Shown here: positions 23,050 through 42,754 of the stretch, one piece after another | Position numbering within the stretch: position 1 is the stretch's first letter | Layout of the letters: the number at the start of each line of letters is the position of its first letter | From: Pyrobaculum sp. 3827-6 | Lineage (GTDB): Archaea; Thermoproteota; Thermoprotei; Thermoproteales; Thermoproteaceae | NCBI RefSeq assembly: GCF_025641885.1 | Contig: NZ_JAOTQN010000005.1 | Span: 62,001-126,000 of the forward strand | DNA: 64,000 bases | Direction of reading: 5' to 3' | Notes under the pieces: generated by a model | The model's input: the letters and a program-made list of their open reading frames with translations, nothing else | Databases searched by the model: none | What the model was told of the DNA's origin: nothing | Made by a program: the position numbers and the translations under genes

Positions 23050-23532
23050 GTGCTCTCTCTCACAAAGCCCTGGGTGGATTTAGAAAAGTACCAGCGAGAT
23101 CGCCTAAAGGAGGCTACGTACGAGGCAGAACTCGCGGAGGAGTTTCTAAAAAACGGCCTCCTTCGAAACGCCGCCGGCAAGGCGTTTCAAGCAGTCAAGG
23201 CCTACCTGGCGGCCGTAGCCGCGGCGCAGAGAGATAAGGTAGTAGCCGCCTTCCCAGGCAGGCGCAGGCTCGGACCCAACAAAATCGTGGAGAGGGGAGA
23301 GTGGATAATTGCCACAATGCCCACGTCTAGAATGCGGGAAGTGGCGGCTCTAGTCGGCGACAGAGAGCTACGGCTAATAGTCGAGCTCGCCCTGAACCTA
23401 CACGAGTTCCAATACAACGGCCTAGACAGAGACGCCGAGGCGTCCAGATACGCCAGCGAGGATATGGTAAAAAGAGACGTAGAGGAGGTAGTGTCCTATA
23501 TCAAAAGAGCGGCGTCCAGCCCACAGTCTTAA
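23050..23532 (+). CDS. PaREP1-family protein
   Basis: 160 aa from the GTG at 23050, about 25 nt below GTTTAAAAC. The pattern WVDLEKYQRDRLKEATYEAE, LAEEFLKNGLLRNAAGKAFQ and AVKAYLAAVAA is characteristic of the PaREP1/PaREP8 family of Thermoproteales: HEPN-like all-helical proteins often found near toxin-antitoxin and nucleotidyltransferase genes. It lacks an obvious R-x4-6-H RNase motif in the C-terminal helix, so RNase activity is not claimed. It converges on the toxin-like array. Confidence 0.7.
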   Translation: MLSLTKPWVDLEKYQRDRLKEATYEAELAEEFLKNGLLRNAAGKAFQAVKAYLAAVAAAQRDKVVAAFPGRRRLGPNKIVERGEWIIATMPTSRMREVAALVGDRELRLIVELALNLHEFQYNGLDRDAEASRYASEDMVKRDVEEVVSYIKRAASSPQS

Positions 23533-23749: not shown

Positions 23750-24373
23750 TCACCAGCCCGGCGCAGATCCCCCTACAGAGTACTTACCTACGACGGAATC
23801 TGCCGCCTCCTTCACAGCGCCGTAGCGACTCCGGCTATGGCTGTCAATATACACGCCGTAGATCCTCTCGGCCACGTTAACATCCATAAGTTTTCCAAGA
23901 GTGGTGTCAAATATAAAAAACGCCGCCCGGCCTCTATCGGCGAGGACAACCACGAACTTAACAGGCACATCCCTAGGATCGCCGACTTTCAGAACCGCCA
24001 AAGACGGCCTCGCCGAGAAGGCTGAGCTAACCCTCCCACCCTCAACACCGCCGCCGTTAAACGCAGATACTAAAGCCGCCACGTAGCCGGGATCCTCTTT
24101 AAGAAGTCTAGCCAAGGCGCCGGCGCGCTCCGCCAACTCGCCCAGCTTCAAATCAGCGGGACCCCCCACGCCCTCCATGTTCTTAACCTCGCCGATAACC
24201 AGCATGTCCGGCACCACACCCAAAAAATCAAGCCGAGGTGCTTGAGGATCGAGCCGTATAAGCACAGAAGAACCCCAGTCGCTACCAACCCCCTTTACGA
24301 AGTCGCGTTCTGGATTAGGTATCGTCACCTCGGCGCCGATACGCGCCGGACTAACGCCCACCAGCTCAGGCAT
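23750..24373 (-). CDS. Orphan class A C-terminal cassette with nuclease-like D...ExK signature
   Basis: 207 aa, starting at ATG 24373. It is homologous to the last ~230 residues of the giant protein 29161-32130. Asp49 (RLDFLG) and Glu62-x-Lys64 (IGEVKNMEG) form a D-x12-E-x-K pattern, as in PD-(D/E)XK nucleases, followed by a helix ELAERAGALARLL and by NGGGVEGGRVSSAF and VKFVVVLAD, both conserved in all class A copies. Upstream of the ATG the matching frame is closed by TAA after FSVAI, so this is a detached domain without secretion signals. Last gene of the array; nuclease activity is inferred. Confidence 0.6.
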   Translation of the reverse strand: MPELVGVSPARIGAEVTIPNPERDFVKGVGSDWGSSVLIRLDPQAPRLDFLGVVPDMLVIGEVKNMEGVGGPADLKLGELAERAGALARLLKEDPGYVAALVSAFNGGGVEGGRVSSAFSARPSLAVLKVGDPRDVPVKFVVVLADRGRAAFFIFDTTLGKLMDVNVAERIYGVYIDSHSRSRYGAVKEAADSVVGKYSVGGSAPGW

Positions 24374-24496
24374 AATAGCTACAGAGAATTAGCCGCTGTC
24401 AGGACGCGTGAAGGTATAACCTCCCCCCAGCTCGCCGCCACGCGGTACCACACTTTCGGCCCGCGTCCCCCACCTAGAGGCGGACCAGCCCTTGGC

Positions 24497-25435
24497 CTAG
24501 CCCCCGGCGCCGATCCCCCGCGCCCCTCCGTAGACCTCGCCGCAGTCCACCTCTCTCAATCTGGCGAAGCCGCGAAACACCGGACTCGCCACCAGTCTAT
24601 ACTCCCACTTGTACAAAACCAGAGGCCACTTTAGGAGATACGCCGGATCTACCGGAGGCACGTATAGATACGGACATTCGCCTCTGTACCTCAGCTCAAA
24701 CAGCCCAACCCTCTTCACAAACTCCACAGCCCTCCTAAACCTCTCCCTAACCCACCTGACGGGGACCACAGGTATATGCGGGGCATACGGCGGCCCCCTC
24801 ACGTCGTAAACCGAGCCGCGGTAGGGCTCTTTTACAACAACACGGCCGCCGTCCCTAACGGCGAGGTATAGGCCGTCTTCCCAAATCAAAACCCACTCCC
24901 CCGTGTCGAGAGTGCCCAGCACGAGGTCCCACGCAATGTACTTATCCCCGCCCCGGCCCACAAGCCTCAAATAATCCCCCTCGGGCTCGACGATGCGGAA
25001 CTCCTCACCCACCAGGCCGCCAGAGCCGGGGTGCTTCTCTGCGGGGAGTATGGAGACTCTAAACCAGTCCCATCTCTTGTAAAAAGAGGGATTCGCCCGG
25101 TAGAAGAAGGCCAGCTTGACCGTGGGCGGGGCCTCGACAAATGACCTGCTTATCCCGGACACCGTGGGCCATAGTAGGAGGGGCCGCCCGTCCTCCGCCC
25201 ACGCCACGAATCTGCCCCAGCCCTCCCCAGTCCTTATAGGCACGGCGGGGGCGTCGGGGACCAAATAGCCCCTTATGTAGCCTATATGCGCCCTCCCCAC
25301 GTACAGCGGCCAGCTGTCGCGGAGCCTGGGCCGGAAATCCCAAGAGCCGTGCACGGAGGCCAGCACCCTGCACCTCCTCGGGCAATCACCCCCGCTGGGA
25401 CAACAGACGTCTACATATCTATAAGCGACAATCAT
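24497..25435 (-). CDS. Immunity-like paralogue, group 3
   Basis: 312 aa, no signal peptide or membrane span. A variable N-terminal part with CCPSGGDC and CRVLA leads to the module shared by all seven paralogues: GEEFRIVE, GDYLRLVGRGGDKYIAWDLV, LGTLDTGEWVLIWEDGLYLA and a PYRGSVYDVRGPP end (about residues 145-230). A C-terminal part contains LLKWPLV, also seen in its relatives. The start overlaps the preceding class A half-cassette as ATGA. Proposed cognate immunity protein for class A products; direct function unknown. Confidence 0.6.
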   Translation of the reverse strand: MIVAYRYVDVCCPSGGDCPRRCRVLASVHGSWDFRPRLRDSWPLYVGRAHIGYIRGYLVPDAPAVPIRTGEGWGRFVAWAEDGRPLLLWPTVSGISRSFVEAPPTVKLAFFYRANPSFYKRWDWFRVSILPAEKHPGSGGLVGEEFRIVEPEGDYLRLVGRGGDKYIAWDLVLGTLDTGEWVLIWEDGLYLAVRDGGRVVVKEPYRGSVYDVRGPPYAPHIPVVPVRWVRERFRRAVEFVKRVGLFELRYRGECPYLYVPPVDPAYLLKWPLVLYKWEYRLVASPVFRGFARLREVDCGEVYGGARGIGAGG

Positions 25436-25836
25436 TTCAAAAACTGCACCACAGGCGCGTATTTAGAATACTTATCAATCAGGTTGCCAACCATATCTGA
25501 AATACTCGAATAAAAATCTGCAATAGAAGACGGATCTCGTTGCGACAGCTGTCTGTAAGCCCGCCACGTCTCGTCGGCTACCCTCCTTAAATAGGCCGTG
25601 TCCAGCAGGCCCTCCGGCTTCGCGTCGTATACAAAGACAGCCGCCCTATCCACGTCAGCTAACACCACCACAAATTTAACCCTTTTTATTCTGTCAAACG
25701 GGGCGAGGTTAGGATCTGCGGCAAAGGCGCTACTCACCCGCCCACCCCCCGCCATCCGGCCGCCGTTAAAAGTAGAGACCAAGGCCACAAGAGCCCAGCA
25801 GTGTGGTTGCCAAAAAACTATTAACTTTGACAACAA
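25432..25836 (-). CDS. Truncated class A cassette (second half only)
   Basis: 134 aa from a TTG at 25836 that lies inside the end of the upstream paralogue. It matches the class A domain only from STFNGGRMAGGGRVSSAF onward, with RVKFVVVLADVDRAAVFVYD and the FLK end; the D...ExK half is missing. It is probably a remnant left by recombination, or a non-nuclease form. It overlaps the next immunity-like gene as ATGA, so the array spacing is kept although the domain is cut. Confidence 0.5.
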   Translation of the reverse strand: MLSKLIVFWQPHCWALVALVSTFNGGRMAGGGRVSSAFAADPNLAPFDRIKRVKFVVVLADVDRAAVFVYDAKPEGLLDTAYLRRVADETWRAYRQLSQRDPSSIADFYSSISDMVGNLIDKYSKYAPVVQFLK

Positions 25837-26861
25837 ATCCCAATATACAGAAGAAAGCCGTCGGTCACACCCACATCCCCCAGCCTAACAATCTCCACCA
25901 CAGCGCTCTCCGGCCTCACCAACGGCCACTTCAGCAGAGTGGTGTCCTCCACTACATTCGCCCCGTACTCCCTGGCATGTTTAAACGTGCGTGTGGGGAC
26001 CACCGGGTACGTGTACGCCTTTGGAGGACCTCTCACATCTACAAGAGAGCCGCCATACGGCTCTCTAACGACGACGCGGCCGCCCTCTCTAACAGCAGTG
26101 TAGAGGCCGTCCTCCCCCATCAAAACCCACTCCCCCGTGTCGAGAGTGCCGAGGACGAAATCCCACGCAATGTACTCATCCCCACCCCTACCCACTAGGC
26201 GTAGGTAGTCCGCGTCCAGCTCCACAATACGAAACTCCTCGCCCGTTAACCTGCCGGAACCCGGGAAACGGGGATCAGCGCCGTGGTAGACGGTGTTGAT
26301 AGGGGGTTTGCAAACTTCGCCGATGTCTTGTATAGTGTAATTTTTCCTCTTGTATTCATTAGCGCATTCCCCTTTATATCTTATGGAGAGCATAGCCGCG
26401 GTGATGTAGCTAATACCCTCATCAAGGGACAGCAGTACCGGTGGAGAGCCGCCTGAGTCCGGCACGAGAGCCACCCCACCCCCCGGCAGAAGGGCGTAGA
26501 CGCCGAGATATCTGCCGCCACTGACGTAGTCCCCGCCGATGAAGCGCGTCCAGCGAAACTCGCCGCCGCTTAGATAAGGGGCGGGAGGCGCCGGGTAGTC
26601 AGCCACAGGCGGAGGCCCGGACTCTGCGTAGATTAGATAAAGGCCGTCCTGCGCGGGTAGCACCACGTAGTGCCCTCCGCCGCCTTCTGTAAACAGCGCA
26701 AGCCCCCACGTTGAGACCCTTCTAAACATCTCCCTCCCCCCAGCCGGTGTGCGGACAAATCTAAAGCCGACCCTCCTCACGCCAGCCGTCAGCCCCAGCC
26801 CTCCCTCGAAAGAGAGAGCCTCCCCGCACCCGTCGCCGCAGACAATAACCTCGGGAATCAC
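25821..26861 (-). CDS. Immunity-like paralogue, group 3
   Basis: 346 aa, cytosolic. Begins MIPEVIVCGDGCGEALSF; the shared module is at about 205-290 (GEEFRIVELDADYLRLVGRG, AWDFVLGTLDTGEWVLMGED, GLYTAVREGGR). It is closest to 24497-25435, also with KWPLV near the end. The ATG overlaps the stop of the upstream half-cassette as ATGA. Together these two genes form a group that is interleaved with the truncated class A cassettes. Confidence 0.6.
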   Translation of the reverse strand: MIPEVIVCGDGCGEALSFEGGLGLTAGVRRVGFRFVRTPAGGREMFRRVSTWGLALFTEGGGGHYVVLPAQDGLYLIYAESGPPPVADYPAPPAPYLSGGEFRWTRFIGGDYVSGGRYLGVYALLPGGGVALVPDSGGSPPVLLSLDEGISYITAAMLSIRYKGECANEYKRKNYTIQDIGEVCKPPINTVYHGADPRFPGSGRLTGEEFRIVELDADYLRLVGRGGDEYIAWDFVLGTLDTGEWVLMGEDGLYTAVREGGRVVVREPYGGSLVDVRGPPKAYTYPVVPTRTFKHAREYGANVVEDTTLLKWPLVRPESAVVEIVRLGDVGVTDGFLLYIGICCQS

Positions 26862-27337
26862 CGCAGAAACTGGGGAGTACCCACAAATTCCGTAGCCACA
26901 CGATTAACAACCTCCGGTATTGGCTTGCCCCCCGCGAGCTCCACCTGGTAGAAGTTGTCATAAGCGTCGCCAGCCACACGCTTTAAGAAATCCGGCGTCA
27001 GCGAACCCAGCTCAGTCTCCACCGCGTAGACAACCCCCCTACCCAGCCTCATATCCACAAGCACCAGAGAAAACACAACCGGCGTCTTCTCGCCGCGCCA
27101 GTTCAGCTTTGCAATACGCGGCTCATATACAAAAGTACTAGTGGCCCCGGAGGCTCCCACCCCGCTGAACCTAGCCCCGTTGAACGCCGCTATGTAATAC
27201 GACAAAATTTCACCAGCAGATAGCCCACCTCTAGCAAGTTTCCCAACAGAGACAAGGGCGCCCACTTTCCTATACACCTCATCCATATCGTTTATAAGCC
27301 GCTCCCAGGCGCCCTCCCTCAACACCGCCGGACGCAT
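26858..27337 (-). CDS. Truncated and divergent class A cassette
   Basis: 159 aa, ATG at 27337 directly after the TAG of the upstream gene. The match to class A domains starts at YYIAAFNGARFSG and continues through PVVFSLVLVDMRLGRGVVYA, TPDFLKRVAGDAYDNFYQ and the terminal QFLR. The first ~45 residues are unrelated and the D...ExK half is absent. Most divergent copy. Could be an inactive remnant or a regulator of its relatives. Confidence 0.5.
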   Translation of the reverse strand: MRPAVLREGAWERLINDMDEVYRKVGALVSVGKLARGGLSAGEILSYYIAAFNGARFSGVGASGATSTFVYEPRIAKLNWRGEKTPVVFSLVLVDMRLGRGVVYAVETELGSLTPDFLKRVAGDAYDNFYQVELAGGKPIPEVVNRVATEFVGTPQFLR

Positions 27338-28174
27338 CTAGCCGCGCCCCCGGCGCGCCTCCGCGCACAGATCCCGCAACCTCGACGCCGCGGCCGACAC
27401 GTCAACCCGCTCAACCGGCCACATGGTAACCCCCCGGAAAACCTCGCTATCGTCGAGACAAACCCCCTTGTAGCTGACAGAACCACCACCGCCACATATC
27501 GGAAAACCCGGCGTCGAAGCCGCCGCAAAACCCAAATACGGCGGCCCTTCTACTTTCCTTACGTCGTCTTGATAGGGGCTTACCACCTCCACATAGCCAA
27601 ACCTCTCCCCGTCCTCCCGTCTGTGGAAAACCCCCACATACAAGCCGTCTCTACCCATAAGCACCCACCCCCCATCCACCACACCCAAGACAAAATTCAA
27701 AACAAAATCCACACCCCAAGGAGTCTCCATAAGAAGATACTCCCCCACCCTCCTATACACCACAAACCTCTCACCCAAAAGAGAACCTCTCCCGGGTATA
27801 CTCAACCCCTCAAAAATGGACTGGGCCGACGCCCCATATTTTCTAGACAGCGGACGGAGGTAGAAGGCCAAATACCTGGCATTTGTCCACAACTTACTAA
27901 AGACCTCGCCCAGCCTGCGTTCACCAAGCGGAGGCTTCAACGTGTGGATAAAACTCGGAGATCCGCCGAGGATCTCCCGAGCTGTATAAGCCGAGGTTAG
28001 AGTAAGCCTCACGACGTGACACGTCGACGTCAGAGCCAGAACAGGAACAGCTCTGCAACCCCTCCACAGATTGCACTCGGCTACCCCACCTACCCCGACA
28101 ACCTCTAGATAATATGGAACCGTGTGGTCCTCCTCAACGACAGGCGGGGCTAGTAGGTACACGCCGGCCAACAT
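27338..28174 (-). CDS. Immunity-like paralogue, group 2
   Basis: 278 aa, cytosolic. The module reads GERFVVYRRVGEYLLMETPW, FVLNFVLGVVDGGWVLMGRD, GLYVGVFHRREDGERFGYVE and PYQDDVRKVEGPP. Its DNA contains a 209-bp stretch (27543-27751) identical to the neighbouring gene, as printed. N-terminal and C-terminal parts are not alike in the two genes; the C-terminal part has WPVERVDV where others have KWPLV. It overlaps the preceding paralogue by about 25 bp. Confidence 0.6.
   Translation of the reverse strand: MLAGVYLLAPPVVEEDHTVPYYLEVVGVGGVAECNLWRGCRAVPVLALTSTCHVVRLTLTSAYTAREILGGSPSFIHTLKPPLGERRLGEVFSKLWTNARYLAFYLRPLSRKYGASAQSIFEGLSIPGRGSLLGERFVVYRRVGEYLLMETPWGVDFVLNFVLGVVDGGWVLMGRDGLYVGVFHRREDGERFGYVEVVSPYQDDVRKVEGPPYLGFAAASTPGFPICGGGGSVSYKGVCLDDSEVFRGVTMWPVERVDVSAAASRLRDLCAEARRGRG
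27543..27751. repeat. 209-bp direct repeat, copy 1
   Basis: Identical by eye, over its full length, to 28307-28515. It encodes the module of the group 2 paralogue 27338-28174. Perfect identity between otherwise diverged genes points to recent duplication or gene conversion. Confidence 0.85.
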
Positions 28175-29151
28175 AGCGTCTGCAAATCCCCCTGCCTAGC
28201 TTCAAAATAATTATCCGAGTCCTCATATATCTGAACCTCCCCGGGCTTGCACCCAGTCGCCCGGGCCACCTCCTGCGTGCAGAAGACGTGCGGAATCAAG
28301 TCGGTAGGCCCTTCTACTTTCCTTACGTCGTCTTGATAGGGGCTTACCACCTCCACATAGCCAAACCTCTCCCCGTCCTCCCGTCTGTGGAAAACCCCCA
28401 CATACAAGCCGTCTCTACCCATAAGCACCCACCCCCCATCCACCACACCCAAGACAAAATTCAAAACAAAATCCACACCCCAAGGAGTCTCCATAAGAAG
28501 ATACTCCCCCACCCTTCTGTAGACTGTGAACTTCTCGCCTATGTGGGCGCCGCCGCCAGGCGCCTTGAACTCCAGCAGTATGTGGCCCCCCGCGACGCCG
28601 TAGAGCGCCCCCACGGCGCCGGCGTAGAGCACCGGGTACCCCGAGACGCCGCGGATAACAGACTCAGCCCCGCCGGGACGCACCGCGGCGCCGCCCCACA
28701 GAAGCCTAGCAGGCCTCCACCCAGCCGCCGCCGAAGGCGGCCAGAGATGGCGCCGCCACCGAGGAGCCGCCGCGTCCACCTCCACCAGCAGAGAGCCGGG
28801 TCTGAAGACACCCCCCTCAAAGACGTAGGTCGGCGCCAGGACCCTCCCCCTCCCGCCACACACCACGTACACCAGGGGGCAGGGAGATATGTCGATAGGA
28901 ACCAGGTAGAGCGAAGCCCCGGCGGAGCCCACCTGCGCATACCCCCTGCAACTAGGCGCCGAGAAGTAGACGCGGACCTCCTCCAAGAGGCAGGAGGCGT
29001 CGCGCTCCACCGTGGCCAAAAGCCCAACGGAGCTGTCCAAAACCCAGCCGCCGGCCCAGCGGCGGGCGAGGCTCTCCATGAAGAAGACGTCTACCCGAGC
29101 CTCCTCCAACACGTCGAAAAGCGGCGAGGCAACGGGGACGGCCACGCCCAC
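28150..29151 (-). CDS. Immunity-like paralogue, group 2
   Basis: 333 aa, following the class A giant gene after 9 bp, the expected position of cognate immunity. No secretion signal; N-terminal part is unrelated to its neighbour (VLEEARVDVFFMESLARRWA). The shared module (GEKFTVYRRVGEYLLMETPW and on) lies at about 215-290 and includes the 209-bp perfect repeat. The C-terminal tail has several Cys (FCTQEVARATGCKPGEV, LQTLCWPACTY). Confidence 0.6.
   Translation of the reverse strand: MGVAVPVASPLFDVLEEARVDVFFMESLARRWAGGWVLDSSVGLLATVERDASCLLEEVRVYFSAPSCRGYAQVGSAGASLYLVPIDISPCPLVYVVCGGRGRVLAPTYVFEGGVFRPGSLLVEVDAAAPRWRRHLWPPSAAAGWRPARLLWGGAAVRPGGAESVIRGVSGYPVLYAGAVGALYGVAGGHILLEFKAPGGGAHIGEKFTVYRRVGEYLLMETPWGVDFVLNFVLGVVDGGWVLMGRDGLYVGVFHRREDGERFGYVEVVSPYQDDVRKVEGPTDLIPHVFCTQEVARATGCKPGEVQIYEDSDNYFEARQGDLQTLCWPACTY
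28307..28515. repeat. 209-bp direct repeat, copy 2
   Basis: Second copy of the repeat at 27543-27751, lying 764 bp from it in the same orientation, inside 28150-29151. Divergence begins abruptly on both sides. Confidence 0.85.
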
Positions 29152-29160
29152 AGTAGGCGG

Positions 29161-32130
29161 CTATTTTAAAAACTCTACGTACCACGTGTACGCCCTGTAG
29201 CGGTCGGCCACCCTCCCCACAGCCTCCCCTATGCCGTACAGGCGCTCCCGCGCCTCGGCCTCCCTAAACCCGTAGTAAACCTCCTCGGCCACCCTCTTCA
29301 AAAAGCTGACATCCCGAAGCTGGTCCAGCGACACGTCGTATGTAAAAACCACTGCTCTCTTTGCGTCCGCCGCCACCACGACGAACTTCACCCCGCCGGG
29401 GGCGAAGATCTTCTTCAGGTCGGGGAAAATCAAAACCTGGCTAGCCATAAACGAGCTGGAGACCCTCCCCCCGCCCGGCAACCTCCCCCCGTTGTATACA
29501 GAAACCAACGCGCTTAGCAACGCGGCGTTATCCCTAAGGAGGTCAGCCAGCACCGCAGCCCTATCCGCCACCTTGCTGAGCTCCAAATCCGCAGGTCCGC
29601 CCAGGCCCTCCATATTCTTAACCTCCCCAATCAACAACCTGCCGTCGTCCAGAACCCCCAAGATGTCAAGCCGGTAGCCCGTGGGGCTTAGAGGTATGAA
29701 GGCAGTCTTCCTCCCAAAGGCGGTTTCGCTAATAGCCACGTCCCACACCCACCTCCCATCGCGGTAAACCGCCGGCAGAGTAACCTCGGCACCCACCACG
29801 GCGGGGTTTACGCCGGCAATCTCCGGCATCAAAGCCGCAGAGAGGTACTTGTAGAAAGTCTCCGGCTTGCCCTCCAGCGCATATAGAGAAGAGCCGTATG
29901 AGAGGACGTACACCTCGCGGTTCCGGTACACCCCCCTATACACGTCGCCACTAAACCCACGCGCAATAGCCAAGGCGGTAAACATGTCGTTATAGCCAAT
30001 AACAACAGGTCGGCCGCTCTTTACATCCACAACCTCACTCACCAGATAACCCGCGGTACCCACACTATATTTCGAAATCCTTATCTCAAACCCACCACCC
30101 CCGCCAACCACCACCGAAGACACCCGCGTAAGGCCGGTCACTTCGAAACGCCTCCCCAAATCCCTCGCCCTCATAACCGCCACGTCTCCAGACTCCCTCA
30201 CCCCCACAATATGCTTCCCAAACATAACCGCGTCAACACCACCCTTAACACGGCGCAGAAGCTCACTATCTCTAAACACCGGCACGGGAGGCTCGTAGTT
30301 GAAGGCGGCCATTGCGGTGAGCTGTCTGTTGCCTAGCCAGTCTTTGTTTTTGGCGAGATCGCTGAGGTCTACGAAAGCCGACGCGATGCCCAGCCACCTA
30401 GCCGCCTCCACCTCCTGGGCGTAGGTAGAGAAGGCTTGGAGAGCCCCGTCAACGAAACACTCGGCGTACGCGCCGTACCGCCCCGCCTCCGAGTAGAGCT
30501 CCCCCGCGAATTGAGAAGCCGCGTCGAAGGGCTCCCCCAGAAACAGCATGACGGCGCCGCCCCCGGCAAGAGTCGCGGCGATGGGCTTAACCCTAGCCGC
30601 AACAGGCCCCCCGGCCAAAAGCGCCGCGTCTGCGATAGTACCCCAGCTGACCCTGCCCGACGACGCCTCTAGATACGTGTCCCAGCCCAGGAGGACTCCA
30701 TGGGCCAGGAGATCCGCAAGCGACAGCACCTTAGCCACCAGCCACGCCTTCCTAGCCAGCTCCGCCGCCTTAGCCGCCGCCGCGCCGGCGGAGGCCCCCA
30801 GCTTAACCCCCACCAGCGAGCCGCCGGTAGCCACCAGAAGCGCCCCGCCAGCCGCCGCGTCCAGCTCAGTAGCCACCCCAGCCAGCCCCAGCCTCTCCGC
30901 CGCCCACCGCCTCCCAGCCCCACGCGCCAACAGACACTGATCCCCAGTCACAAACCCCCAAAACTGCTCCACAGCACCCCAGAAGTAGTTGAGAACCGAG
31001 CCGTTCTGCGTCGCCAACCTGCCCCCTACGTAGAACGTATAGCTACCCCACGAAACCGACTCATTCACAACACGCAACTTATACGAAACGACGTAGAAAC
31101 CCCCCTCCCTCGCCAAGCCGTAGACATAGAAACTACGCATCGACCCCGCAGGCACAACCACGTCGAAAGACCCCGCCTCCGCCCCCCTAGGCCTCCCCAC
31201 CCCCGTCTTGTTAGACACGTGAAGCTCCAGCCTCCACGCCACAGACACGTTGCTGGGATTCACCAGGAAAAGCCGCCCCTGGCCCCCAAGCTGGACGTCG
31301 AAAACAAGCGGCACCACGTAGGTCAAGTCGGGCTGGAGGCGGAAGACGGCCGTGCCGTACCTCCTCTCAACGGCAGTAACGTTGTAGCCAAAAGGCCGCG
31401 TGAGAAGCGACGCCTCAGACGCGTTGAGGCCGAAAACCGCGGCGAAGGCGAGAGCCTCCTGGAGGGCAGGAGGGCCGCACGCCCCCTCCACAATATCTTG
31501 AGAGACAGAGACGCCGGGGCGGGAGGGCCAGTTAAAGGCGTATGTAATGCGCTGGCCCAAGAGCACCCCGCCCCGCCACAAGGCGCAAGCCACGCGCTGA
31601 GGCGACACGTCAGCCAGCTTAAGCGACCCGTCCGCCGCGGCGACCCTCACCGTCTGCTGAGCCCACGCGTCGACAAGCACTATGTAGTAGACCCCGGGGG
31701 ACAGCACACCCGACACGCGGCACGTCTGGCCGCCCCCCGTCGAGCACTCCATGACAGAGAGCCCCGCGTCCGACACCACGTACGCCATCGTACGCGGAAG
31801 CTGATACGACCACCACCCCGAAATCTCCAGAGAAGTGCGCCTCCCCAGCTCCACCGCCACCACGTAGAACCCCATAGCCGAGGGGTCACCCGACGTGTCA
31901 AAGACGATGGAGGTGGAGTTAATCGAGAGGAAGCGCCCCTCGGCGTTGGGATAGGGGCAGGACCCGACATCACAGTGAATAAACTCACCCCAGAAGACGC
32001 TATACCCAAACACAGAAACCCCAACAACCAGAACAACCAGAACAAGCCACCAAACCCCATACCCAACGAAAAAAGTATCAAACATCACGTAGACAACATA
32101 CAACACCGCGGCGGGATACGCTAGGCACAA
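29161..32130 (-). CDS. Giant membrane-anchored protein with class A nuclease-like C terminus (toxin candidate)
   Basis: 989 aa from a TTG at 32130, about 24 nt below GTTTATC (32151-32157); an ATG at 32085 is an alternative. Order of parts: hydrophobic N-terminal anchor (to about residue 50), a beta-rich ectodomain with several N-x-S/T sequons to about 400, a Gly/Ala-rich hydrophobic helical region (for example LDAAAGGALLVATGGSLVGV) to about 620, a linker, and the class A domain (about 760-989) with Asp822 and Glu836-x-Lys838 in IGEVKNMEG. This layout (anchor, display region, hydrophobic passage region, C-terminal toxin) is that of polymorphic toxins. Activity is inference. Confidence 0.62.
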   Translation of the reverse strand: MCLAYPAAVLYVVYVMFDTFFVGYGVWWLVLVVLVVGVSVFGYSVFWGEFIHCDVGSCPYPNAEGRFLSINSTSIVFDTSGDPSAMGFYVVAVELGRRTSLEISGWWSYQLPRTMAYVVSDAGLSVMECSTGGGQTCRVSGVLSPGVYYIVLVDAWAQQTVRVAAADGSLKLADVSPQRVACALWRGGVLLGQRITYAFNWPSRPGVSVSQDIVEGACGPPALQEALAFAAVFGLNASEASLLTRPFGYNVTAVERRYGTAVFRLQPDLTYVVPLVFDVQLGGQGRLFLVNPSNVSVAWRLELHVSNKTGVGRPRGAEAGSFDVVVPAGSMRSFYVYGLAREGGFYVVSYKLRVVNESVSWGSYTFYVGGRLATQNGSVLNYFWGAVEQFWGFVTGDQCLLARGAGRRWAAERLGLAGVATELDAAAGGALLVATGGSLVGVKLGASAGAAAAKAAELARKAWLVAKVLSLADLLAHGVLLGWDTYLEASSGRVSWGTIADAALLAGGPVAARVKPIAATLAGGGAVMLFLGEPFDAASQFAGELYSEAGRYGAYAECFVDGALQAFSTYAQEVEAARWLGIASAFVDLSDLAKNKDWLGNRQLTAMAAFNYEPPVPVFRDSELLRRVKGGVDAVMFGKHIVGVRESGDVAVMRARDLGRRFEVTGLTRVSSVVVGGGGGFEIRISKYSVGTAGYLVSEVVDVKSGRPVVIGYNDMFTALAIARGFSGDVYRGVYRNREVYVLSYGSSLYALEGKPETFYKYLSAALMPEIAGVNPAVVGAEVTLPAVYRDGRWVWDVAISETAFGRKTAFIPLSPTGYRLDILGVLDDGRLLIGEVKNMEGLGGPADLELSKVADRAAVLADLLRDNAALLSALVSVYNGGRLPGGGRVSSSFMASQVLIFPDLKKIFAPGGVKFVVVAADAKRAVVFTYDVSLDQLRDVSFLKRVAEEVYYGFREAEARERLYGIGEAVGRVADRYRAYTWYVEFLK

Positions 32131-32178
32131 AGAGGGAGAGAGGCTACGGAGATAAACACCCCACGCCGCCGCTTTTCC

Positions 32179-33327
32179 CTAACCCCAACATTTGTAACAC
32201 GTCTCCGTAGTCAACAACCCCAGCGGATCTCTATCCGCGGCCGCCAAGACGTGGGGACACGGATCCGCCAGAGGCCAGTCAAGCAAGACGCGGCTAGGCA
32301 CATCCACCTCAACCAGCTCCGGGACGACAAACGACCCCCCACAAGACCAGCCACCGGGGAGAAACCTACCCACGTCAAAAACCCCAGATCCCCTCAAAAC
32401 ATCCCCCACATACCCCAACAACGCCCTCACTACCCCTCTGCCCTCCTCACCACATGCGACAAGCCTGGGAGCGCCGCAGGGAGACTGCACATCGTCAACA
32501 TCGCCTCTATAGGGGCCGGCCACCCTAACATAGCCAACCTCGCCGAACGTCTCCAAAGGCCTCTCCACAGTAGCCGTAAAAACAGCCTCGTAAAGCCCGT
32601 CGTCCCCGACGAGGACCCACCTGCCGTCGTCTAGTGTGCCGAGGACGCGGTGCCAAGCCAGCCAAGAGCCGACGCGAAGGTAGCCATCCCTGCGCCTAAC
32701 CACGGGAAGCTCCGCCCCTAAAAGAGCGCCCCGTCCCGGCGCCGCGACAGGGGGGCCGACTGGGGAGTGGTACACGGCGGCCTTAGCTAGGGAGAATTTA
32801 CACGAGCTGTGGATATTGGGATCAAACCCACACTCCTTGCAGTACGTCGAGATGCCCCCCTCGGCGAGTATAAAAACCGCGTCACATACGTCTCTCGGGT
32901 AGTTCAGCCCAACGAGTTCAAAAACATCAGAACAGCCAGCGACATACACCCACCACCTAGACCCCGCCAGGGGCGCCGTGCATAGAGGCTTAAAAAACCC
33001 CCCATAAGGCCCTTCAAGCCTCATGACAACTCTATCCAGCAGATAGACAGGCGACGCCGAGAAGAGGCGGCACCTCCCGCCGTAGTCAACACCAGCCGGC
33101 CACCTACCCCCCCAAAGTTGCGCCGGCTCCCCCCACGCCAAGCCGTGCCTCTCCCAAAAAGATCTGTCGACATCCGCACATACATAAGCCACGAACCCGC
33201 CCCCCGCCCTGCCCACCACCGCCGCCGCCGAGCCCTCAACCAAGCCGACGCCGCACACCCCCACGTAGCTCCTCAACCCAAACCTCCCCACCCCCAGCCA
33301 GCGCCTCCACAAAAGACCCAAATCCAC
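32179..33327 (-). CDS. Immunity-like paralogue, group 1
   Basis: 382 aa, cytosolic, Cys- and Trp-rich. It follows the short class B gene after 3 bp. The module is GAELPVVRRRDGYLRVGSWL, AWHRVLGTLDDGRWVLVGDD and GLYEAVFTATVERPLETFGE, then DVQSPCGAPRLVACGEE and LLDWPLADPCPH near the end, finishing CYKCWG. It is nearly identical in the module to 33868-34800 and 34797-35900. Group 1 is found only next to class B products. Confidence 0.6.
   Translation of the reverse strand: MDLGLLWRRWLGVGRFGLRSYVGVCGVGLVEGSAAAVVGRAGGGFVAYVCADVDRSFWERHGLAWGEPAQLWGGRWPAGVDYGGRCRLFSASPVYLLDRVVMRLEGPYGGFFKPLCTAPLAGSRWWVYVAGCSDVFELVGLNYPRDVCDAVFILAEGGISTYCKECGFDPNIHSSCKFSLAKAAVYHSPVGPPVAAPGRGALLGAELPVVRRRDGYLRVGSWLAWHRVLGTLDDGRWVLVGDDGLYEAVFTATVERPLETFGEVGYVRVAGPYRGDVDDVQSPCGAPRLVACGEEGRGVVRALLGYVGDVLRGSGVFDVGRFLPGGWSCGGSFVVPELVEVDVPSRVLLDWPLADPCPHVLAAADRDPLGLLTTETCYKCWG
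32456..32715. repeat. 260-bp near-identical module repeat, copy 1 of 3
   Basis: Aligns with 34142-34401 and 34993-35252 from GCGACAAGCC to GGGAGCTCCGC with few differences; within it, CCGTAAAAACAGCCTCGTAA and CCAAGCCAGCCAAGAGCCGA are the same in all three. It encodes the shared group 1 module while flanking coding sequence has diverged. Confidence 0.75.
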
Positions 33328-33330
33328 AGA

Positions 33331-33798
33331 CTAGCTAAAACAGCTCTTTAAAATATCGTAACTTATACCCACTCCATCTAGCAAAACAGCCCTCACCCTG
33401 TAACTAGGCCCACTCCCTTGGTAGTCGGCTAAAAGCAAAGCCGCTCTGTTCCTCCCCCCAAGAGCCTCAGCCCACTCCACGAGGCCGCTCCTCGCCTGGG
33501 GATATGCGAGGACGGAGTCGTCGACGGGGGCCGCTTCCCAAGGCGTTGCCCCCACAGTAACCCCACGCAAGACGTCAACTCTAAAGGCGGCCAGGGCTAT
33601 GCCGTAGTCAGTAAATCTGTCACCCGCAAACACACCTGCAGAAATTAAGTTACCGATTGTGTTAGTTGCTTTCTCAACTAACTTACGGATGAGCTTTGGT
33701 TGATCCACATCGCCCTGCACAACCCCGCCAACCACAGCGAAAAAAGCAATACTTATCATAGCAACGCACAACGTCGCCGCGGTAAACACGAGACACAA
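33331..33798 (-). CDS. Short class B product: N-terminal anchor joined to a class B C-terminal domain
   Basis: 155 aa from a TTG at 33798. The first ~35 residues (MCLVFTAATLCVAMISIAFF, VVGGVVQG) align with the N-terminal anchor of the giant 29161-32130 protein, whereas the last ~100 (FRVDVLRGVTVGATPWEA, DDSVLAYPQARSGLVEWAEA, ISYDILKSC) align with the C terminus of the class B giant 35918-38798. The whole ectodomain and helical region are missing, as if deleted internally. It is followed by its own group 1 paralogue. Confidence 0.55.
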   Translation of the reverse strand: MCLVFTAATLCVAMISIAFFAVVGGVVQGDVDQPKLIRKLVEKATNTIGNLISAGVFAGDRFTDYGIALAAFRVDVLRGVTVGATPWEAAPVDDSVLAYPQARSGLVEWAEALGGRNRAALLLADYQGSGPSYRVRAVLLDGVGISYDILKSCFS

Positions 33799-33867
33799 AA
33801 CAGGAGAGGGAGCCCTCCAAAGAGAGGCCCCACGCCGCTTCCGGCGGCGCCGGGCGGCGTGTCTGGC

Positions 33868-34800
33868 CTAGTCCCAGCAGGTGTGGCAGGTGGCGTCTGT
33901 CAAGAGGCCCAGCGGGTCTTGGCTCATTGCCAGCAAGACCGGGGGGCACGGATCCGCCAGAGGCCAGTCTAAAACCACCCAGTTGGGGATATCCAGCTCA
34001 GCCAGCTCCGGAATTACAAAAGGACGCGAACAACTCCACGAAGAAGGGACAAAGAGATCAGGCACAACCCCCCACCCAGCCAGCACGCCCCTCACATACT
34101 CCAACAACGCCCTGGCCACCTTCACGCCCTCCTCACCACATGCGACAAGCCTAGGGGCGCCGCAGGGAGACTGCACCAAATCCACGTCGCCCACATACGG
34201 CCCCACAACCCTAACATAGCCAACCTCGCCGAACGTCTCCAAAGGCCTCTCCACAGTAGCCGTAAAAACAGCCTCGTAAAGCCCGTCGTCTCCAATCAAC
34301 ACCCACCTGCCGTCGTCTAGTGTGCCGAGGACGCGGTGCCAAGCCAGCCAAGAGCCGACGCGAAGGTAGCCATCCCTACGCCTAACCACTGGGAGCTCCG
34401 CGCCGGTGAGAGAGCCGGCGCTAGCGGGGTAGCTTTTAAATGCCCCCGGCTCTTTAATTGCAATCTTCTCTACTACATAGTGCTCAGAAATGGCAATTTT
34501 CGACAGCCCTATGTAGGTAGCGCCCAGTTGCCCATCGTATACAAACATGCCGTATCTCACCCACCACCTACTATAGCCAGTGCTGACGGGAAACGAAGGC
34601 ACATACGCCGGCTTAAATCCATCTAGAACCCCATCCCACTCCTCATACTCGGTATACTTATTCCCCGTCTTTATATACAACCACTTGTGTTTTTTCAGCC
34701 TCTTATAAATCTCCGGATCCAGATACTTATAACACTCAAGACAACACTTATAGACAAGCTCGCCGCGAGGCATCTTCCCCACTGTGTATCTATCGCTCAT
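33868..34800 (-). CDS. Immunity-like paralogue, group 1
   Basis: 310 aa from the ATG at 34800, which overlaps the upstream stop as ATGA; the frame is open further up but there overlaps the upstream gene. It starts MSDRYTVGKMPRGELVYKCC with a CCLEC cluster; the shared module covers about 155-245, then DVDLVQSPCGAPRLVACGEE, VLDWPLADPCPP and a CHTCWD end. It is the second paralogue behind the class B giant, suggesting an immunity duplicate. Confidence 0.6.
   Translation of the reverse strand: MSDRYTVGKMPRGELVYKCCLECYKYLDPEIYKRLKKHKWLYIKTGNKYTEYEEWDGVLDGFKPAYVPSFPVSTGYSRWWVRYGMFVYDGQLGATYIGLSKIAISEHYVVEKIAIKEPGAFKSYPASAGSLTGAELPVVRRRDGYLRVGSWLAWHRVLGTLDDGRWVLIGDDGLYEAVFTATVERPLETFGEVGYVRVVGPYVGDVDLVQSPCGAPRLVACGEEGVKVARALLEYVRGVLAGWGVVPDLFVPSSWSCSRPFVIPELAELDIPNWVVLDWPLADPCPPVLLAMSQDPLGLLTDATCHTCWD
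34142..34401. repeat. 260-bp near-identical module repeat, copy 2 of 3
   Basis: See the copy at 32456-32715; lies within 33868-34800. Confidence 0.75.
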
Positions 34801-35900
34801 AGTCTCCAGTCTAGTAGGCTGTAGTCTCCTAGCTTTAAGAGGGGGGCGCAGGTGTCCGCCAGCGGCCAGTCGAGAGCCTCGCGGCCTAGGGAGAAGACCC
34901 GGCCCTCGCCGAGGAGAACATGAGGGACACCCCCCTCCGCCTCGCACCTATGCCCAGCCGCCGCCAGCGCATCCCTCGTATCTTCAACACAAGCCACAAG
35001 CCTAGGCGCCCCACACGGCGACTGCACATCATCAACATCGCCTCTATAAGGCCCCACAACCCTAACATAGCCAACCTCGCCGAATGCCTCCAGCGGGTCC
35101 TTCACCGTAGCCGTAAAAACAGCCTCGTAAAGCCCGTCGTCTCCAATCAACACCCACCTGCCGTCGTCTAGTGTGCCGAGGACGCGGTGCCAAGCCAGCC
35201 AAGAGCCGACGCGGAGGTAGCCATCCCTACGCCTAACCACTGGGAGCTCCGCGCCGGTGAGAGAGCCAGCGCCAGGCGCAGAAACCGGCTGACCCACAGG
35301 AGACCAAAACAGCCACCTACCCCCAAAAACAAACTTACATAAACTGTAAGTAGTTGTGTAGAAATTGTCTTTATATTTGAAAAGCGTGGCGACGCCGTGC
35401 TCTTTTAACACAACCGTCATAGCCTCGCCCTCGGGGTAGTTTAGCTTCATCACAATCGTCCAAATCGCATCGTCAGACTGGTTGTGGACCCACCACCGGA
35501 TGCCCGCCAGCGGCGGTATACAAATACGTTGAAACGCCCCCTCGTACCGCTCAACATGTTGAAAAAGAAGAGAGCCGCCACCTGTAAGCACACGCCCACC
35601 TACAAGCACAGGTTTAGCCAAGACGAGGCCTTTCACTTCGTAGCGCGGCAATTCGACAAACCCGCCGTTGCTCGCAACTCTACAACTACCCACAACCCTC
35701 CCCCTGTCGACTAATCCGTCGAGATTCTCCAACTCCCCGCCACACGCCTCCCCCCACAGAGCGAAGACGAACCCCCGGGGCGTCCTGCCCACAAGAGTAG
35801 CATTGACGGCTACATAATCGTTACGTTCGTAAATACACGGGCCGACGTACTCCCCAACTCTCGCCACGGTGCCAAGCCAGTGTTTAAACAAAACCTCCAT
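34797..35900 (-). CDS. Immunity-like paralogue, group 1
   Basis: 367 aa from the ATG at 35900 (MEVLFKHWLGTVARV); the frame is also open to 35939, overlapping the class B giant. Cytosolic. The middle segment LAGIRWWVHNQSDDAIWTIV resembles the same region of 32179-33327, so these two are alike beyond the module. Module at about 220-310; LDWPLADTCAPLL near the end. It directly follows the class B giant and is its best candidate immunity gene. Confidence 0.62.
   Translation of the reverse strand: MEVLFKHWLGTVARVGEYVGPCIYERNDYVAVNATLVGRTPRGFVFALWGEACGGELENLDGLVDRGRVVGSCRVASNGGFVELPRYEVKGLVLAKPVLVGGRVLTGGGSLLFQHVERYEGAFQRICIPPLAGIRWWVHNQSDDAIWTIVMKLNYPEGEAMTVVLKEHGVATLFKYKDNFYTTTYSLCKFVFGGRWLFWSPVGQPVSAPGAGSLTGAELPVVRRRDGYLRVGSWLAWHRVLGTLDDGRWVLIGDDGLYEAVFTATVKDPLEAFGEVGYVRVVGPYRGDVDDVQSPCGAPRLVACVEDTRDALAAAGHRCEAEGGVPHVLLGEGRVFSLGREALDWPLADTCAPLLKLGDYSLLDWRL
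34993..35252. repeat. 260-bp near-identical module repeat, copy 3 of 3
   Basis: See the copy at 32456-32715; lies within 34797-35900. Confidence 0.75.
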
Positions 35901-35917
35901 ATAGAAATACCCCCCTC

Positions 35918-38798
35918 TTAAGTATAACAACTGCCCCACGCCTTGTAAACCGCCTCTTCTACAATTTTAAAATCGCCAGCCGCTCTTTCAAAAACTAAAA
36001 GCCTGACGGTATACCTACCATCGCCTCCGCTGTAAACCCCAAAGACGAGCCTCGCCGGGGGGCTCCGGTCCAGCAAACCCGCCCACTCCGTCAGCGCAGT
36101 TTTAATCTGCGGATAAGCTAAGACTTTATCCGAAACCTCCCCACTTGCCATAGCCCCAACAGTAGCCCCCGCAACCGCGTCTGTCCTAAAACCCAACAGA
36201 GCAACCCCCCTATTGGTTAGACAAAGCCCATCTCTACAAGCCGATAAAACACCCTCATTTAATAATACACCCACTGTGGGATTCGTATCACTACTCCCCC
36301 AGAAAAACTTCTGCACCACCTCGCTAAGTTCTTTCCCAACTTCTAGTAAGTAGACGCCGTCTTTAGACAGCGCAACGCCGTCAGGAGAGATTAGACGCGT
36401 ACCCTTGAGATGAATAAACTTAGGCCCCACGCCGTATATCGGCCTCCCAGGCTCTAAATAACCAGCTAAGCCAGACATAATTAGCGGCTTGTCCATAGAC
36501 TCCCTACCCCGGGGGTCAATATCCACCTCATATGCGTATTGTACAAACGACGCAACGCCTAGATGCTCTAGAGCCGAAAACACCCCCAGCGACGCCAATC
36601 TCTGTTGCCACTCTCTCCACGCCCCCTCGCTTAAAAACGACTTAAGATCGTCTATTAACCCCTGGGCATAACTAATAGAAACCTCTGCACACACATACCT
36701 ACTTCTAAACCCCTTGACGGACACCTCCCCCCTGCCCACCCTCGCCACTTTAAACGTCGCAAGACCCTCATCTACCAACTTATTAAAAAGCCCGTAGTTA
36801 CTCCAACGGTAAAAACTCCTGTCACTCGTAAAACCAAACATAAAACCGCCGCCTACCTCCCCCTCCCCACTAGGCGCATAAGCCAAATAGTACCTCCCCC
36901 CTCCGCCCACACGCGCCTCTATAGACCTAGCAATAACTTGATATGCACCTCCCCTCTCCTTAAACTCCGCCACCACCTCAGCAACTATCTTACCCTCCTT
37001 CTCCACGAAAACCCCCATTCTTGACAGCTGTACTACAGCCGCGACGTTGCTCCCCTCCCCCAATTCGCTCGCTAGTCTTTCAACAGCCACATTCCACACA
37101 TCTTCTTTAACGCCAACAGGCCCCCAAGCCCTGGCGGCGACATACGTAGCATGAATGGCATAATCAAACCTCTTAGCCCTACCCGCAACGCCGACGAACG
37201 ACCTGCCGAATTTCTCCAGGGCGTCTTTCGACACCTTGGCGTATAGGTTGGAGACCAGGTCGACGACGGCGGACACTCTCTGCACCCAGGAGACGTAAAC
37301 CGCTGCGTAGTACCTGCCGGCGTTGCGGCACGACTGCTCCGTCAAAACCCCGGCGTGGAACCGCTCCACCTCAGACAACTCAACCCCAAAAGCGGAGAAC
37401 ACCTCCCCAGCCTCCTGAGGCGCAAGAAGCTGCCGTATATCCTCCGCGATGAAGACGTCGGGCAGGAGGTAGCCCGCCGCAGACCCCGCAGCCCTAGCCC
37501 ACCTGCTGGCAGACAAGGCAGTTACGGCAGACCTAACGGCGGAGATCAAGTCGCCGATCTCCCCAAGCCCCCTGGCCCCCCTCGCCAGCCACTTCCCAAA
37601 AAAGCCCACAATCCTCCCCACCGGCACGACGGTGAGAGCCACGTCCCCCAGCAGAGAGTAGTCGTAGGGATCCGCCGCCTTGTCAAAAGCATCCCAAAAA
37701 GCCCTCTGACACCAATCCACGGCGTCCACAAGCCTCTTCGCCTCAGGCGGGAGAAAAACCGCGTGAAGCGGCCGCAACAAAACAGACCGGTTCCCAGCCA
37801 CGAGGCGGGGCTTGTCAAAAGAAACGGAGAAGTTGCCCAGCGAGTACGCGCCGGCAGGGGCGTAGAGGAAGAGAGACGCCTCAGACACCCCGTCAACTCC
37901 CCGAAACACCGCCGGCGACACCACCACGGCGTCTAGAGCAGGCACCGTGAGGTTAAAACGCAGCACCCCGCTGACCCCGCCCCTGGAAAACTTCAAAACA
38001 GCCAAATAAGTCACGTTGCCACAAGAGGGGTTCCCCACCACGAAAAGCCCCGTCCCGTTAGACTGCACCTCAAAAAACACAGGCACAGACACCACAGAGC
38101 CGTTAGACAAGACAAAACGCACCACCCCATCCCCCCGGTCAACCCTCCGCACAGACAGACCAAACCCCCTCAAAAGGGCATCCGCCTCCCCCGCGTCAAG
38201 CCCCACAGCCGCCGCCCACCCCAACACGGCAAGCGGCGATCGGCACAAAGCACCCCGAGAGTAGAAAACAGCGTAGGAATCCGCCCGCGGATCCCCAAGA
38301 GACCTCAAATCAACCCGCAGAACATCCCCGACAAACTCACCCACCGGCCCACTCCCCATGGAGCCGCCGTAGTGGATAAAGAAGAGAGACCCATTTACAT
38401 AAACCTCGTGGCCAAACCCACCCTGGTGCCACAAAACCTGCACCACCCACCTACCCCCCACGTAGACAACCCTCAAAATCTCATCCTCATACAAAGTACC
38501 CACATTCCTCACAGGAGGAGGCTCGTCAGAGTCACACCACGTACAATCCTCCCAAAACAAAGTCGAGAACAGACCCGTTAATGCGGCTAAACCTCCACTC
38601 GGCACCCACAGAAGCCCTCACCAAAACCTCAGAATACCCCAAATCCCACCAACGCTGAAGATCAAACACCTTCAGATAATACACACCCCTATAGTCACCA
38701 GTGTCGTTACCCACAAAAACAGCCCCATTAGTCTCCACATTACCACCCAACACAAACACCCCAGCCAGAACCCCCAGCACCAGCCACCAAACCCGCAT
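35918..38798 (-). CDS. Giant secreted/anchored protein with class B C terminus (toxin candidate), frameshift near the N terminus
   Basis: Two frames make one gene. ATG 38798 gives a signal-like start (MRVWWLVLGVLAGVFVLGG) and 88 codons to a TGA at 38532; a second frame, open from 38605, carries on with CDSDEPPPVRNVGTLYEDEI for about 870 residues. A single-base change between 38532 and 38605 would join them into about 950 aa. The ectodomain has several sequons, then a helical region (SLLGDVALTVVPVGRIVGFF), long alpha-beta segments, and a class B end (FRTDAVAGATVGAMASGEVS, DKVLAYPQIKTALTEWAGLL) shared with 33331-33798. Its C terminus is unrelated to class A and has no recognised catalytic motif. 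Confidence 0.6.
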
Positions 38799-38896: not shown

Positions 38897-39087
38897 AGAC
38901 AGACACCCCACGCCGCCGCCTCGGCCCATTCGCCCGCCGCCCCGCACGCTCGGGCGGTTGGGAGGGGCCGGCTCCCCCCTCGGGAAAACCCTCGGGAGTT
39001 ACACCGCCCCCCCATCAAACCCGTCTTCTACGGGAGCCCTCGTGCCCCGGGGTCGCCCCCAGGGCAACGGCCGCCTCGTCTCGGGGA

Positions 39088-39122
<35 letters not shown>

Positions 39123-41389: not shown

Positions 41390-41422
<33 letters not shown>

Positions 41423-42720: not shown

Positions 42721-42754
<34 letters not shown>

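What the first reader, a model, noticed from the sequence alone, without database searches (positions are those of the whole stretch)
23750..38798. A 15-kb polymorphic-toxin-like array in an archaeon
Seen: 13 tightly packed, same-strand genes. Two giants (989 aa and ~950 aa) share an anchor/ectodomain/hydrophobic-helical layout but have unrelated C-terminal domains. The same C-terminal domains recur as detached cassettes (23750, 25432, 26858, 33331), and seven cytosolic paralogues alternate with them. Known: this layout (full-length toxin, immunity gene, then orphan tip/immunity pairs) defines contact-dependent and Rhs-type polymorphic toxin loci in bacteria. Inference: this is an archaeal intercellular toxin/immunity system, perhaps displayed on the cell surface.
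Basis: partly seen in the sequence, partly recalled or inferred. Interest (0 to 1): 0.93.

Follow-up and report, generated by a model that had tools for sequence, protein, structure and literature searches.

The report
Archaeal toxin–immunity array beside 23S rRNA
Next to its ribosomal RNA genes this heat-loving archaeon (Pyrobaculum) carries an array that looks like a shuffled toxin-and-antidote arsenal for fighting related cells, a type of system that is well studied in bacteria but almost unstudied in archaea, and its antidote genes share a copied-and-pasted middle segment.

Summary
Thirteen co-directed genes run from 38798 to 23750, starting 140 bp past the 23S rRNA 3' end: two giants (A and B), four detached C-terminal cassettes and seven paralogues. 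B is broken by a 5-nt deletion near its start; three of the four cassettes start at or after the catalytic motif; the paralogues share only a ~80-aa core.

Homologous loci occupy the same site in seven other genomes of the family. Close relatives share a giant body but differ in C-terminal parts, with sharp breakpoints, and the downstream gene changes with the tip. Two window orphans are live tips of giants in other genomes, each followed there by the matching paralogue. One Pyrobaculum giant is a B-head/A-body chimera followed by an ankyrin gene. A-type tips carry a D…ExK nuclease motif that matches NucS; B-type tips are less certain.

New here: adjacent immunity-like genes have 96–98% identical cores (dS 0.05–0.14) between unrelated arms, re-homogenised separately in each genome. 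No toxicity, immunity or delivery was tested, and the structure models were poor. Verdict: a new archaeal variant of polymorphic toxin systems.

The parts
38938..43246 (-). 23S rRNA gene; its 3' end is the fixed left edge of the array
   Evidence: Rfam LSU_rRNA_archaea, 2596 bits; the last ~397 bp match 15 of 19 family genomes
38532..38798 (-). Giant B, first frame: ATG start, signal/anchor and start of ectodomain (88 aa)
   Evidence: TATA-like TTTAAATAA ~26 nt upstream of the ATG
35918..38605 (-). Giant B, second frame (895 aa): rest of ectodomain, helical body, variable C-terminal tip; separated from its head by a 5-nt deletion
   Evidence: body 92-98% DNA-identical to G003 down to ~37200, then a different tip
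34797..35900 (-). Immunity-like gene I1 of toxin B (ORF listed to 35939; ATG at 35900)
33868..34800 (-). Immunity-like gene I2 of toxin B (ATG at 34800, 4-bp ATGA overlap with I1)
33331..33798 (-). Orphan B-type tip, displaced; 92.6% identical to the live tip of giant B in genome G003; preceded by a degenerate copy of the giants' promoter/leader
32179..33327 (-). Immunity-like gene belonging to orphan tip 33331; orthologue follows that tip in G003
29161..32130 (-). Giant A (up to 989 aa): N-terminal hydrophobic anchor, sequon-rich ectodomain (to ~aa 390), helical body, divergent C-terminal nuclease region
   Evidence: start codon uncertain
29617..29667 (-). D-x-L-x5-G-x5-E-V-K motif of giant A (PD-(D/E)XK-like active site)
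   Evidence: invariant in all six A-type giants; profile match to NucS
28150..29151 (-). Immunity-like gene I1 of toxin A
27338..28174 (-). Immunity-like gene I2 of toxin A
28306..28539 (-). Gene-converted core of I1-A (96% DNA identity with the I2-A core, unrelated flanks)
27542..27775 (-). Gene-converted core of I2-A
26858..27337 (-). Orphan A-type tip (post-catalytic part); 48% identical to the live tip of giant A in genome G001
25821..26861 (-). Immunity-like gene after orphan 26858; 59% identical to the gene that follows the G001 giant
25432..25836 (-). Orphan A-type tip (post-catalytic part only)
   Evidence: 44% identity to giant A aa 872-989, E 1e-23
24497..25435 (-). Immunity-like gene after orphan 25432 (4-bp overlap)
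   Evidence: a broken homologue is the only remnant beside the rRNA genes in G016
23750..24373 (-). Orphan A-type nuclease cassette with the complete D...EVK motif (24182-24229) and no immunity-like gene downstream
   Evidence: 45% identity to giant A aa 768-978, E 1e-39
23050..23532 (+). PaREP1 gene, right flank of the array, also at this position in G003, G007 and G016
   Evidence: Pfam PaREP1 7e-26

Best explanation
This is an archaeal polymorphic toxin-immunity locus. Each giant is exported by an N-terminal signal/anchor and carries a glycosylated extracellular head, a helical body and an exchangeable C-terminal effector. In type A the effector is a PD-(D/E)XK-type nuclease followed by a fast-evolving ~120-aa end; type B probably has a divergent effector of the same kind. 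The one or two genes after each tip encode cytosolic immunity proteins whose variable arms match that tip. New tip-plus-immunity segments enter by homologous recombination in the giant's body and displace old tips and their immunity genes downstream, leaving orphans that still protect. SHOWN by sequence: common body with different tips, sharp breakpoints, displaced tips that are live tips elsewhere, neighbour genes changing with the tip, sequons enriched only in the head, the nuclease motif in A tips, and gene conversion of the immunity core. INFERRED: toxicity, neutralisation by the neighbour genes, display on the cell surface and delivery into competing Thermoproteaceae cells.
For: Same locus next to 23S rRNA in eight genomes including this one; in the four checked genomes without homologues no such gene lies downstream of the 23S gene. 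G003 and G001 tip/neighbour matches. Breakpoints. Tip-neighbour correlation. B-head/A-body chimera in Pyrobaculum sp. WP30 followed by a 1011-aa ankyrin protein; ankyrin repeats are a listed immunity class in PMC3482391. Fused double-core proteins in G002 (683 aa) and G014 (551 aa), like 'polyimmunity proteins'. D...EVK invariant in all six A giants; A-tip profile vs NucS profile 38.6, above the maximum of 21.1 in 100 shuffles; NucS_C at E 0.0074 on the same motif in the G001 giant; the two top PDB sequence hits, both sub-threshold, are PD-(D/E)XK nucleases on the same motif. Sequon enrichment in the heads. Giant A dN/dS 0.13 against WP30.
Against: No known toxin, immunity or secretion family matched. 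The B-tip nuclease is unsupported beyond motif register. AlphaFold models were poor (mean pLDDT 50 and 46) and Foldseek gave nothing. Of twelve giant copies only four are read without a frameshift or stop (window A, WP30 A and B, G001 A), and the window's own B is broken, so the system is often inactive or decaying. Among the four full-length B giants alone, tip and neighbour similarity do not correlate (r=0.07). No delivery machinery was identified.
Confidence: 0.82

Rival explanations
1. A variable surface-recognition or adhesin locus: the giants are S-layer-like or adhesive glycoproteins whose C-terminal domains vary for recognition or antigenic reasons, and the paralogues are chaperones or ligands, as proposed among the alternatives for VARTIG loci of Thermococcales.
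For: Exported sequon-rich heads; hypervariable C-termini; no family match; VARTIG has a similar layout without identified toxins (PMC8416519).
Against: The varying part of A carries an invariant nuclease-type D...ExK motif; sequons are at chance level in the varying part; displaced tips each keep their own soluble partner gene; one partner is replaced by an ankyrin protein together with its tip.
Confidence: 0.1
2. An intracellular defence or toxin-antitoxin island in which PD-(D/E)XK cassettes act against viruses or mobile DNA inside the same cell.
For: Standalone cassette 23750 has a full nuclease motif and no signal peptide; the genes are packed like an operon.
Against: The full-length proteins have an N-terminal hydrophobic export segment and an ectodomain with sequon enrichment at P<=0.002 in each giant; no PADLOC model matches; no relative in viral contigs.
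Confidence: 0.04
3. A decayed relic: an old polymorphic toxin locus kept only as orphan immunity (and rearranged by repeats), no longer used as a weapon.
For: Eight of twelve giant copies are broken, including window B, and three cassettes are truncated; G016 keeps only a broken immunity-like gene.
Against: Four giants are intact and giant A is under purifying selection between window and WP30 (dN/dS 0.13); the G002 giant B is broken at a G17 run, which could be a reversible switch; recent tip replacement and recent gene conversion show continuing turnover.
Confidence: 0.2

Closest known systems
Bacterial polymorphic toxin systems in general (Zhang et al. 2012, PMC3482391), with Tox-REase toxins, Imm-ank and polyimmunity proteins
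   Same: Large exported protein with constant N-part and exchangeable C-terminal effector, immunity gene right after it, standalone tip cassettes, REase-type D and ExK positions in A, an ankyrin protein as partner in one locus, fused multi-core partners
   Different: No known trafficking, repeat, pretoxin or processing domain; tips and partners match no Tox or Imm family; found only in Thermoproteaceae among 398 phylum genomes; partner genes come in pairs with a gene-converted core
Contact-dependent growth inhibition (CdiA-CT/CdiI) and Rhs loci with orphan modules (Poole et al. 2011, PMC3150448)
   Same: Orphan tip/immunity pairs downstream; body shared between strains with sharp divergence at one point; an orphan of one strain is the live tip of another
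   Different: No CdiB, no filamentous-haemagglutinin or RHS repeats, no VENN-like marker; three of four orphans here lack the catalytic motif, and the orphans have possible start codons
Predicted archaeal polymorphic toxins (Makarova et al. 2019, mBio; not held in the library, known here only through citations in PMC8416519)
   Same: Archaeal, predicted only, nuclease toxins said to be the commonest toxin moieties
   Different: Whether this Pyrobaculum locus was listed there could not be checked
VARTIG modules of Thermococcales (PMC8416519)
   Same: Hypervariable C-terminus by inter-species recombination, large exported first gene, co-directed downstream genes
   Different: VARTIG is built of Ig domains and has no identified toxin; here no Ig domain matched Pfam and the A tip has a nuclease motif
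NucS / EndoMS C-terminal nuclease domain (PF01939)
   Same: Motif D-iLGV-x3-G-x-L-x3-E-x-K aligned by profile comparison
   Different: Only ~19 columns align; the rest of the tip is unrelated and no NucS N-domain is present

Membership tests
Polymorphic toxin system | Constant N-terminal part joined to different C-terminal domains in related strains | tested here: met
   W-B vs G003-B and G001-A vs G002-A breakpoints; WP30 chimera
Polymorphic toxin system | Standalone cassettes homologous to C-terminal tips | tested here: met
   Four in the window, two of them live tips elsewhere; another beside G002 orphan genes
Polymorphic toxin system | Dedicated partner gene next to each tip that changes with the tip | tested here: met
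   except that 23750 has no partner downstream
Polymorphic toxin system | C-terminal domain is a toxin | tested here: inconclusive
   A tips: PD-(D/E)XK motif and NucS profile match; B tips not significant; activity untested
Polymorphic toxin system | Export signal or trafficking domain | tested here: inconclusive
   N-terminal hydrophobic segment and sequon-rich head; no known trafficking domain
Polymorphic toxin system | Partner neutralises the toxin | not testable with these tools
   needs expression and binding experiments
CDI (CdiBAI) | CdiB transporter, FHA repeats, VENN junction | tested here: not met
   No Pfam match in any gene of the array; no VENN at the breakpoints in the printed sequences
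Rhs | RHS/YD repeats enclosing the tip | tested here: not met
   No Pfam match
VARTIG | Ig domains in the large protein | tested here: not met
   No Pfam match in either giant or in relatives
PD-(D/E)XK nuclease superfamily (A tips) | D...ExK active-site motif in a profile-level match | tested here: met
   E 6e-5 for one profile pair, 0 of 100 shuffles as high
PD-(D/E)XK nuclease superfamily (A tips) | Fold of the nuclease core | tested here: inconclusive
   Strand-strand-helix order in the better part of a poor model; Foldseek uninformative

The most novel reading that the evidence does not exclude
A crenarchaeal conflict system that uses conserved DNA as exchange hubs. The near-invariant 23S rRNA end, the giant's body and a gene-converted immunity core let species swap whole toxin/immunity segments. 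Each toxin is held by a pair of immunity proteins that share an identical core, possibly acting as a hetero-oligomer, but have unrelated tip-binding arms. No bacterial polymorphic toxin system known to me has this immunity design.
Probability: 0.35. Interest if true: 0.87.

Novelty: new variant of a known kind. Interest (0 to 1): 0.74.

Why it matters
Antagonism between hyperthermophilic archaea is almost unstudied, and predicted archaeal polymorphic toxins have been described as experimentally uncharacterised (PMC8416519). This locus has a fixed address, cultured relatives with intact and broken versions, natural tip swaps between close strains and defined tip/partner pairs, so the prediction can be tested directly. 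The gene-converted immunity core gives a concrete handle on how immunity repertoires are rebuilt.

Tried and rejected
Domain scans with Pfam, NCBIfam, PADLOC and PHROGs found nothing significant in the array. Viral-contig scans and a plasmid protein search found no relatives. AlphaFold of the A nuclease region (6 sequences, pLDDT 50) and of an immunity protein (12 sequences, pLDDT 46) was too poor, and Foldseek hits (sliding clamps, PUR, spliceosome proteins; rank 4 an intein) were treated as noise. Only window and the search for related loci sequences were used for folding, as that tool requires, which kept the alignments shallow. A first profile test with gap-rich shuffles gave three spurious 99% control matches, so it was redone on ungapped columns. 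I considered the immunity core as an in-frame mobile element: the arms keep faint common motifs (a PGxG before the core and a WP after it), so a common fold with gene conversion is more likely; this is not proven. I considered assembly error for the frame breaks: they occur at different sites in several single-contig genomes, so a shared artefact is unlikely, though single cases were not checked against reads. Makarova et al. 2019 could not be read. PMC4158269 lists arCOG09761 as 'Large secreted protein; pyrobaculum specific expansion', which may be these giants, but I could not map it.
Full report
THE SEQUENCE. The window lies in a Pyrobaculum genome: genus-mate G007 is Pyrobaculum sp. WP30 by its record title and contig length. 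The array runs on the minus strand from 38798 to 23750. It begins 140 bp past the 3' end of the 23S rRNA gene (38938) and ends before a PaREP1 gene on the other strand. In order of transcription: giant B, I1-B, I2-B, orphan B tip (33331), partner 32179, giant A, I1-A, I2-A, orphan A tip (26858), partner 25821, orphan A tip (25432), partner 24497, orphan A nuclease (23750). Many neighbours overlap by a few bases.

Giant B is interrupted by a 5-nt deletion (GACTTTG-----TTTTGGGAGGAT, where G002 reads GATTTTGCCTTGTTTTGGGAGGAT), so in this strain it is probably not made as one exported protein. The start of giant A is uncertain. Three of the four orphan tips begin at or after the catalytic strand. 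The seven paralogues are alike only in a short core.

RELATED LOCI. Giants, tips or partner genes were found in seven other genomes of the family (G001, G002, G003, G006, G007, G014, G016), in each case just downstream of the 23S gene. A wider search of 398 genomes of the phylum found none outside this family (7 with giants, 8 with partners). In four genomes without homologues (G004, G005, G010, G015) the 23S gene is followed by other genes. Only the WP30 name was confirmed by a record title.

TIP EXCHANGE. (a) Window B and G003 B: 92–98% DNA identity down to window ~37200, then ~50%. The G003 tip is the window's orphan 33331 (92.6% aa), and the gene after it is the orthologue of 32179 (83% aa). 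The window thus looks like G003 after a new tip and two new partners were inserted and the old end pushed downstream, or G003 looks like the window after a deletion. (b) G001 A and G002 A: identical amino acids from about aa 120 to aa 360 and 93% to aa 420, then 20–52%. (c) The G001 A tip is the homologue of window orphan 26858 (48%), and its next gene is the homologue of 25821 (59%). (d) WP30 has a third giant with a B-type head (58–61% to B heads) and an A-type body (33–35%), itself frame-broken, followed by a 1011-aa ankyrin-repeat protein instead of the usual partner. (e) Normalised similarity of tips correlates with that of the first downstream gene (A r=0.89, P=0.0008; B r=0.88, P=0.008). 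These values include near-identical strain pairs, and among full-length B giants alone r is 0.07, so the breakpoints carry more weight than the correlation.

ANATOMY OF THE GIANTS. One strong hydrophobic segment at the N-terminus. N-x-S/T sequons: 6–9 in each head against 1–1.7 expected (P<=0.002 in each of five giants), 0–1 in the C-parts, as expected by chance. In the divergent C-part of A the densest cluster of invariant residues is D-x-L-x5-G-x5-E-V-K. A profile of nine A tips aligns there with a profile of archaeal NucS (score 38.6; 100 column shuffles reach 21.1 at most). Pfam NucS_C also falls there in G001 (E 0.0074, below its cut-off), and the two best PDB sequence hits, both with E above 0.3, are PD-(D/E)XK nucleases at the same motif. 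B tips have P-D-G-x-A-L...E-V in the same register, but the match is not significant.

IMMUNITY-LIKE GENES. Each intact or nearly intact toxin that has this partner family has at least two tandem partner genes, or one fused gene with two cores (G002 683 aa, G014 551 aa). Adjacent partners share a 78–80-aa core at 96–98% DNA identity (window A pair, WP30 A pair, WP30 B pair; window B pair 91%) while their N-arms score at background (0.03–0.07). Between window and WP30 the A-type arms are orthologous (0.61–0.82) but the cores differ (82–85% DNA). dS in the core is 0.05–0.14 within a genome and 0.69–0.82 between genomes (A pairs; B pairs 0.09–0.21 within and about 1.0–1.3 between). Stretches of about 200 bp are letter-identical with abrupt ends. 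This is the mark of gene conversion, repeated independently in each lineage. The simplest use is that variable arms recognise the tip while the core is a shared assembly or exchange module; that is inference.

HOW IT MOST LIKELY WORKS. The giant is exported and held at the surface or released; on contact with a related cell its C-terminal part enters and cleaves nucleic acid; cells with the matching partner proteins survive. Recombination in the conserved body and along the conserved rRNA end brings in new tip/partner segments, and displaced ones stay as orphans whose partner genes extend protection. Toxin activity, delivery and protection are inferred, not shown.

INACTIVATION. Of twelve giant copies, four read through (window A, WP30 A, WP30 B, G001 A). 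The G002 B giant breaks at a run of 17 G, and a second run (14 C on the plus strand) lies by an orphan B tip of the same genome. This suggests on/off switching in that species, not in the window, whose array has no run of nine or more.

PLACE AMONG KNOWN SYSTEMS. The layout meets the organisational criteria of polymorphic toxin systems (PMC3482391) and behaves like CDI/Rhs orphan arrays (PMC3150448), but it is not CDI, Rhs or VARTIG by their defining parts. Predicted archaeal polymorphic toxins are known (Makarova et al. 2019, cited in PMC8416519), so the kind is not new. The families, the rRNA address and the converted-core immunity pairs are, as far as I could check, undescribed.

Noticed in passing
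39290-39931 and 40532-41290 (-): Two LAGLIDADG-type homing endonuclease ORFs (paralogues; Pfam match tested for the first only) lie inside the 23S rRNA gene, so they are probably intron-encoded; Rfam also matches the 16S gene in separate pieces, so it probably has introns too.
   Followed up: partly
L058/L068 (WP30), G007 739772-742807: A 1011-aa protein made almost wholly of ankyrin repeats follows a chimeric giant at the place of the immunity genes; an ankyrin fragment also lies near the 23S gene in G012 (L116 405-620).
   Followed up: partly
G002 locus (L061+L062 joined from 1714000), positions 16981 and 8386: Runs of 17 G in the broken giant B and 14 C beside an orphan B tip: possible phase-variation tracts in toxin genes.
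   Followed up: partly
L061, G002 1719922-1722400 (-): A second small array on the other side of the rRNA genes: an orphan B-type C-terminal half with a PDALGL...WLEVSK motif next to two immunity-like genes.
   Followed up: partly
32020-32220, 33680-33880, 38690-38890 (-): The promoter/leader DNA of giant B is copied in front of giant A and, in degenerate form, in front of orphan tip 33331, where it supplies a hydrophobic signal-like N-terminus.
   Followed up: partly
13647: A run of 13 C in the window outside the array; not examined.
   Followed up: no
19510-20577 (+), 20898-21590 (+), 23050-23532 (+): PaRep2b, a coiled-coil protein and PaREP1, Pyrobaculum repeat-type families, flank the array; a PaRep2b-like gene also lies inside the WP30 array.
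   Followed up: no
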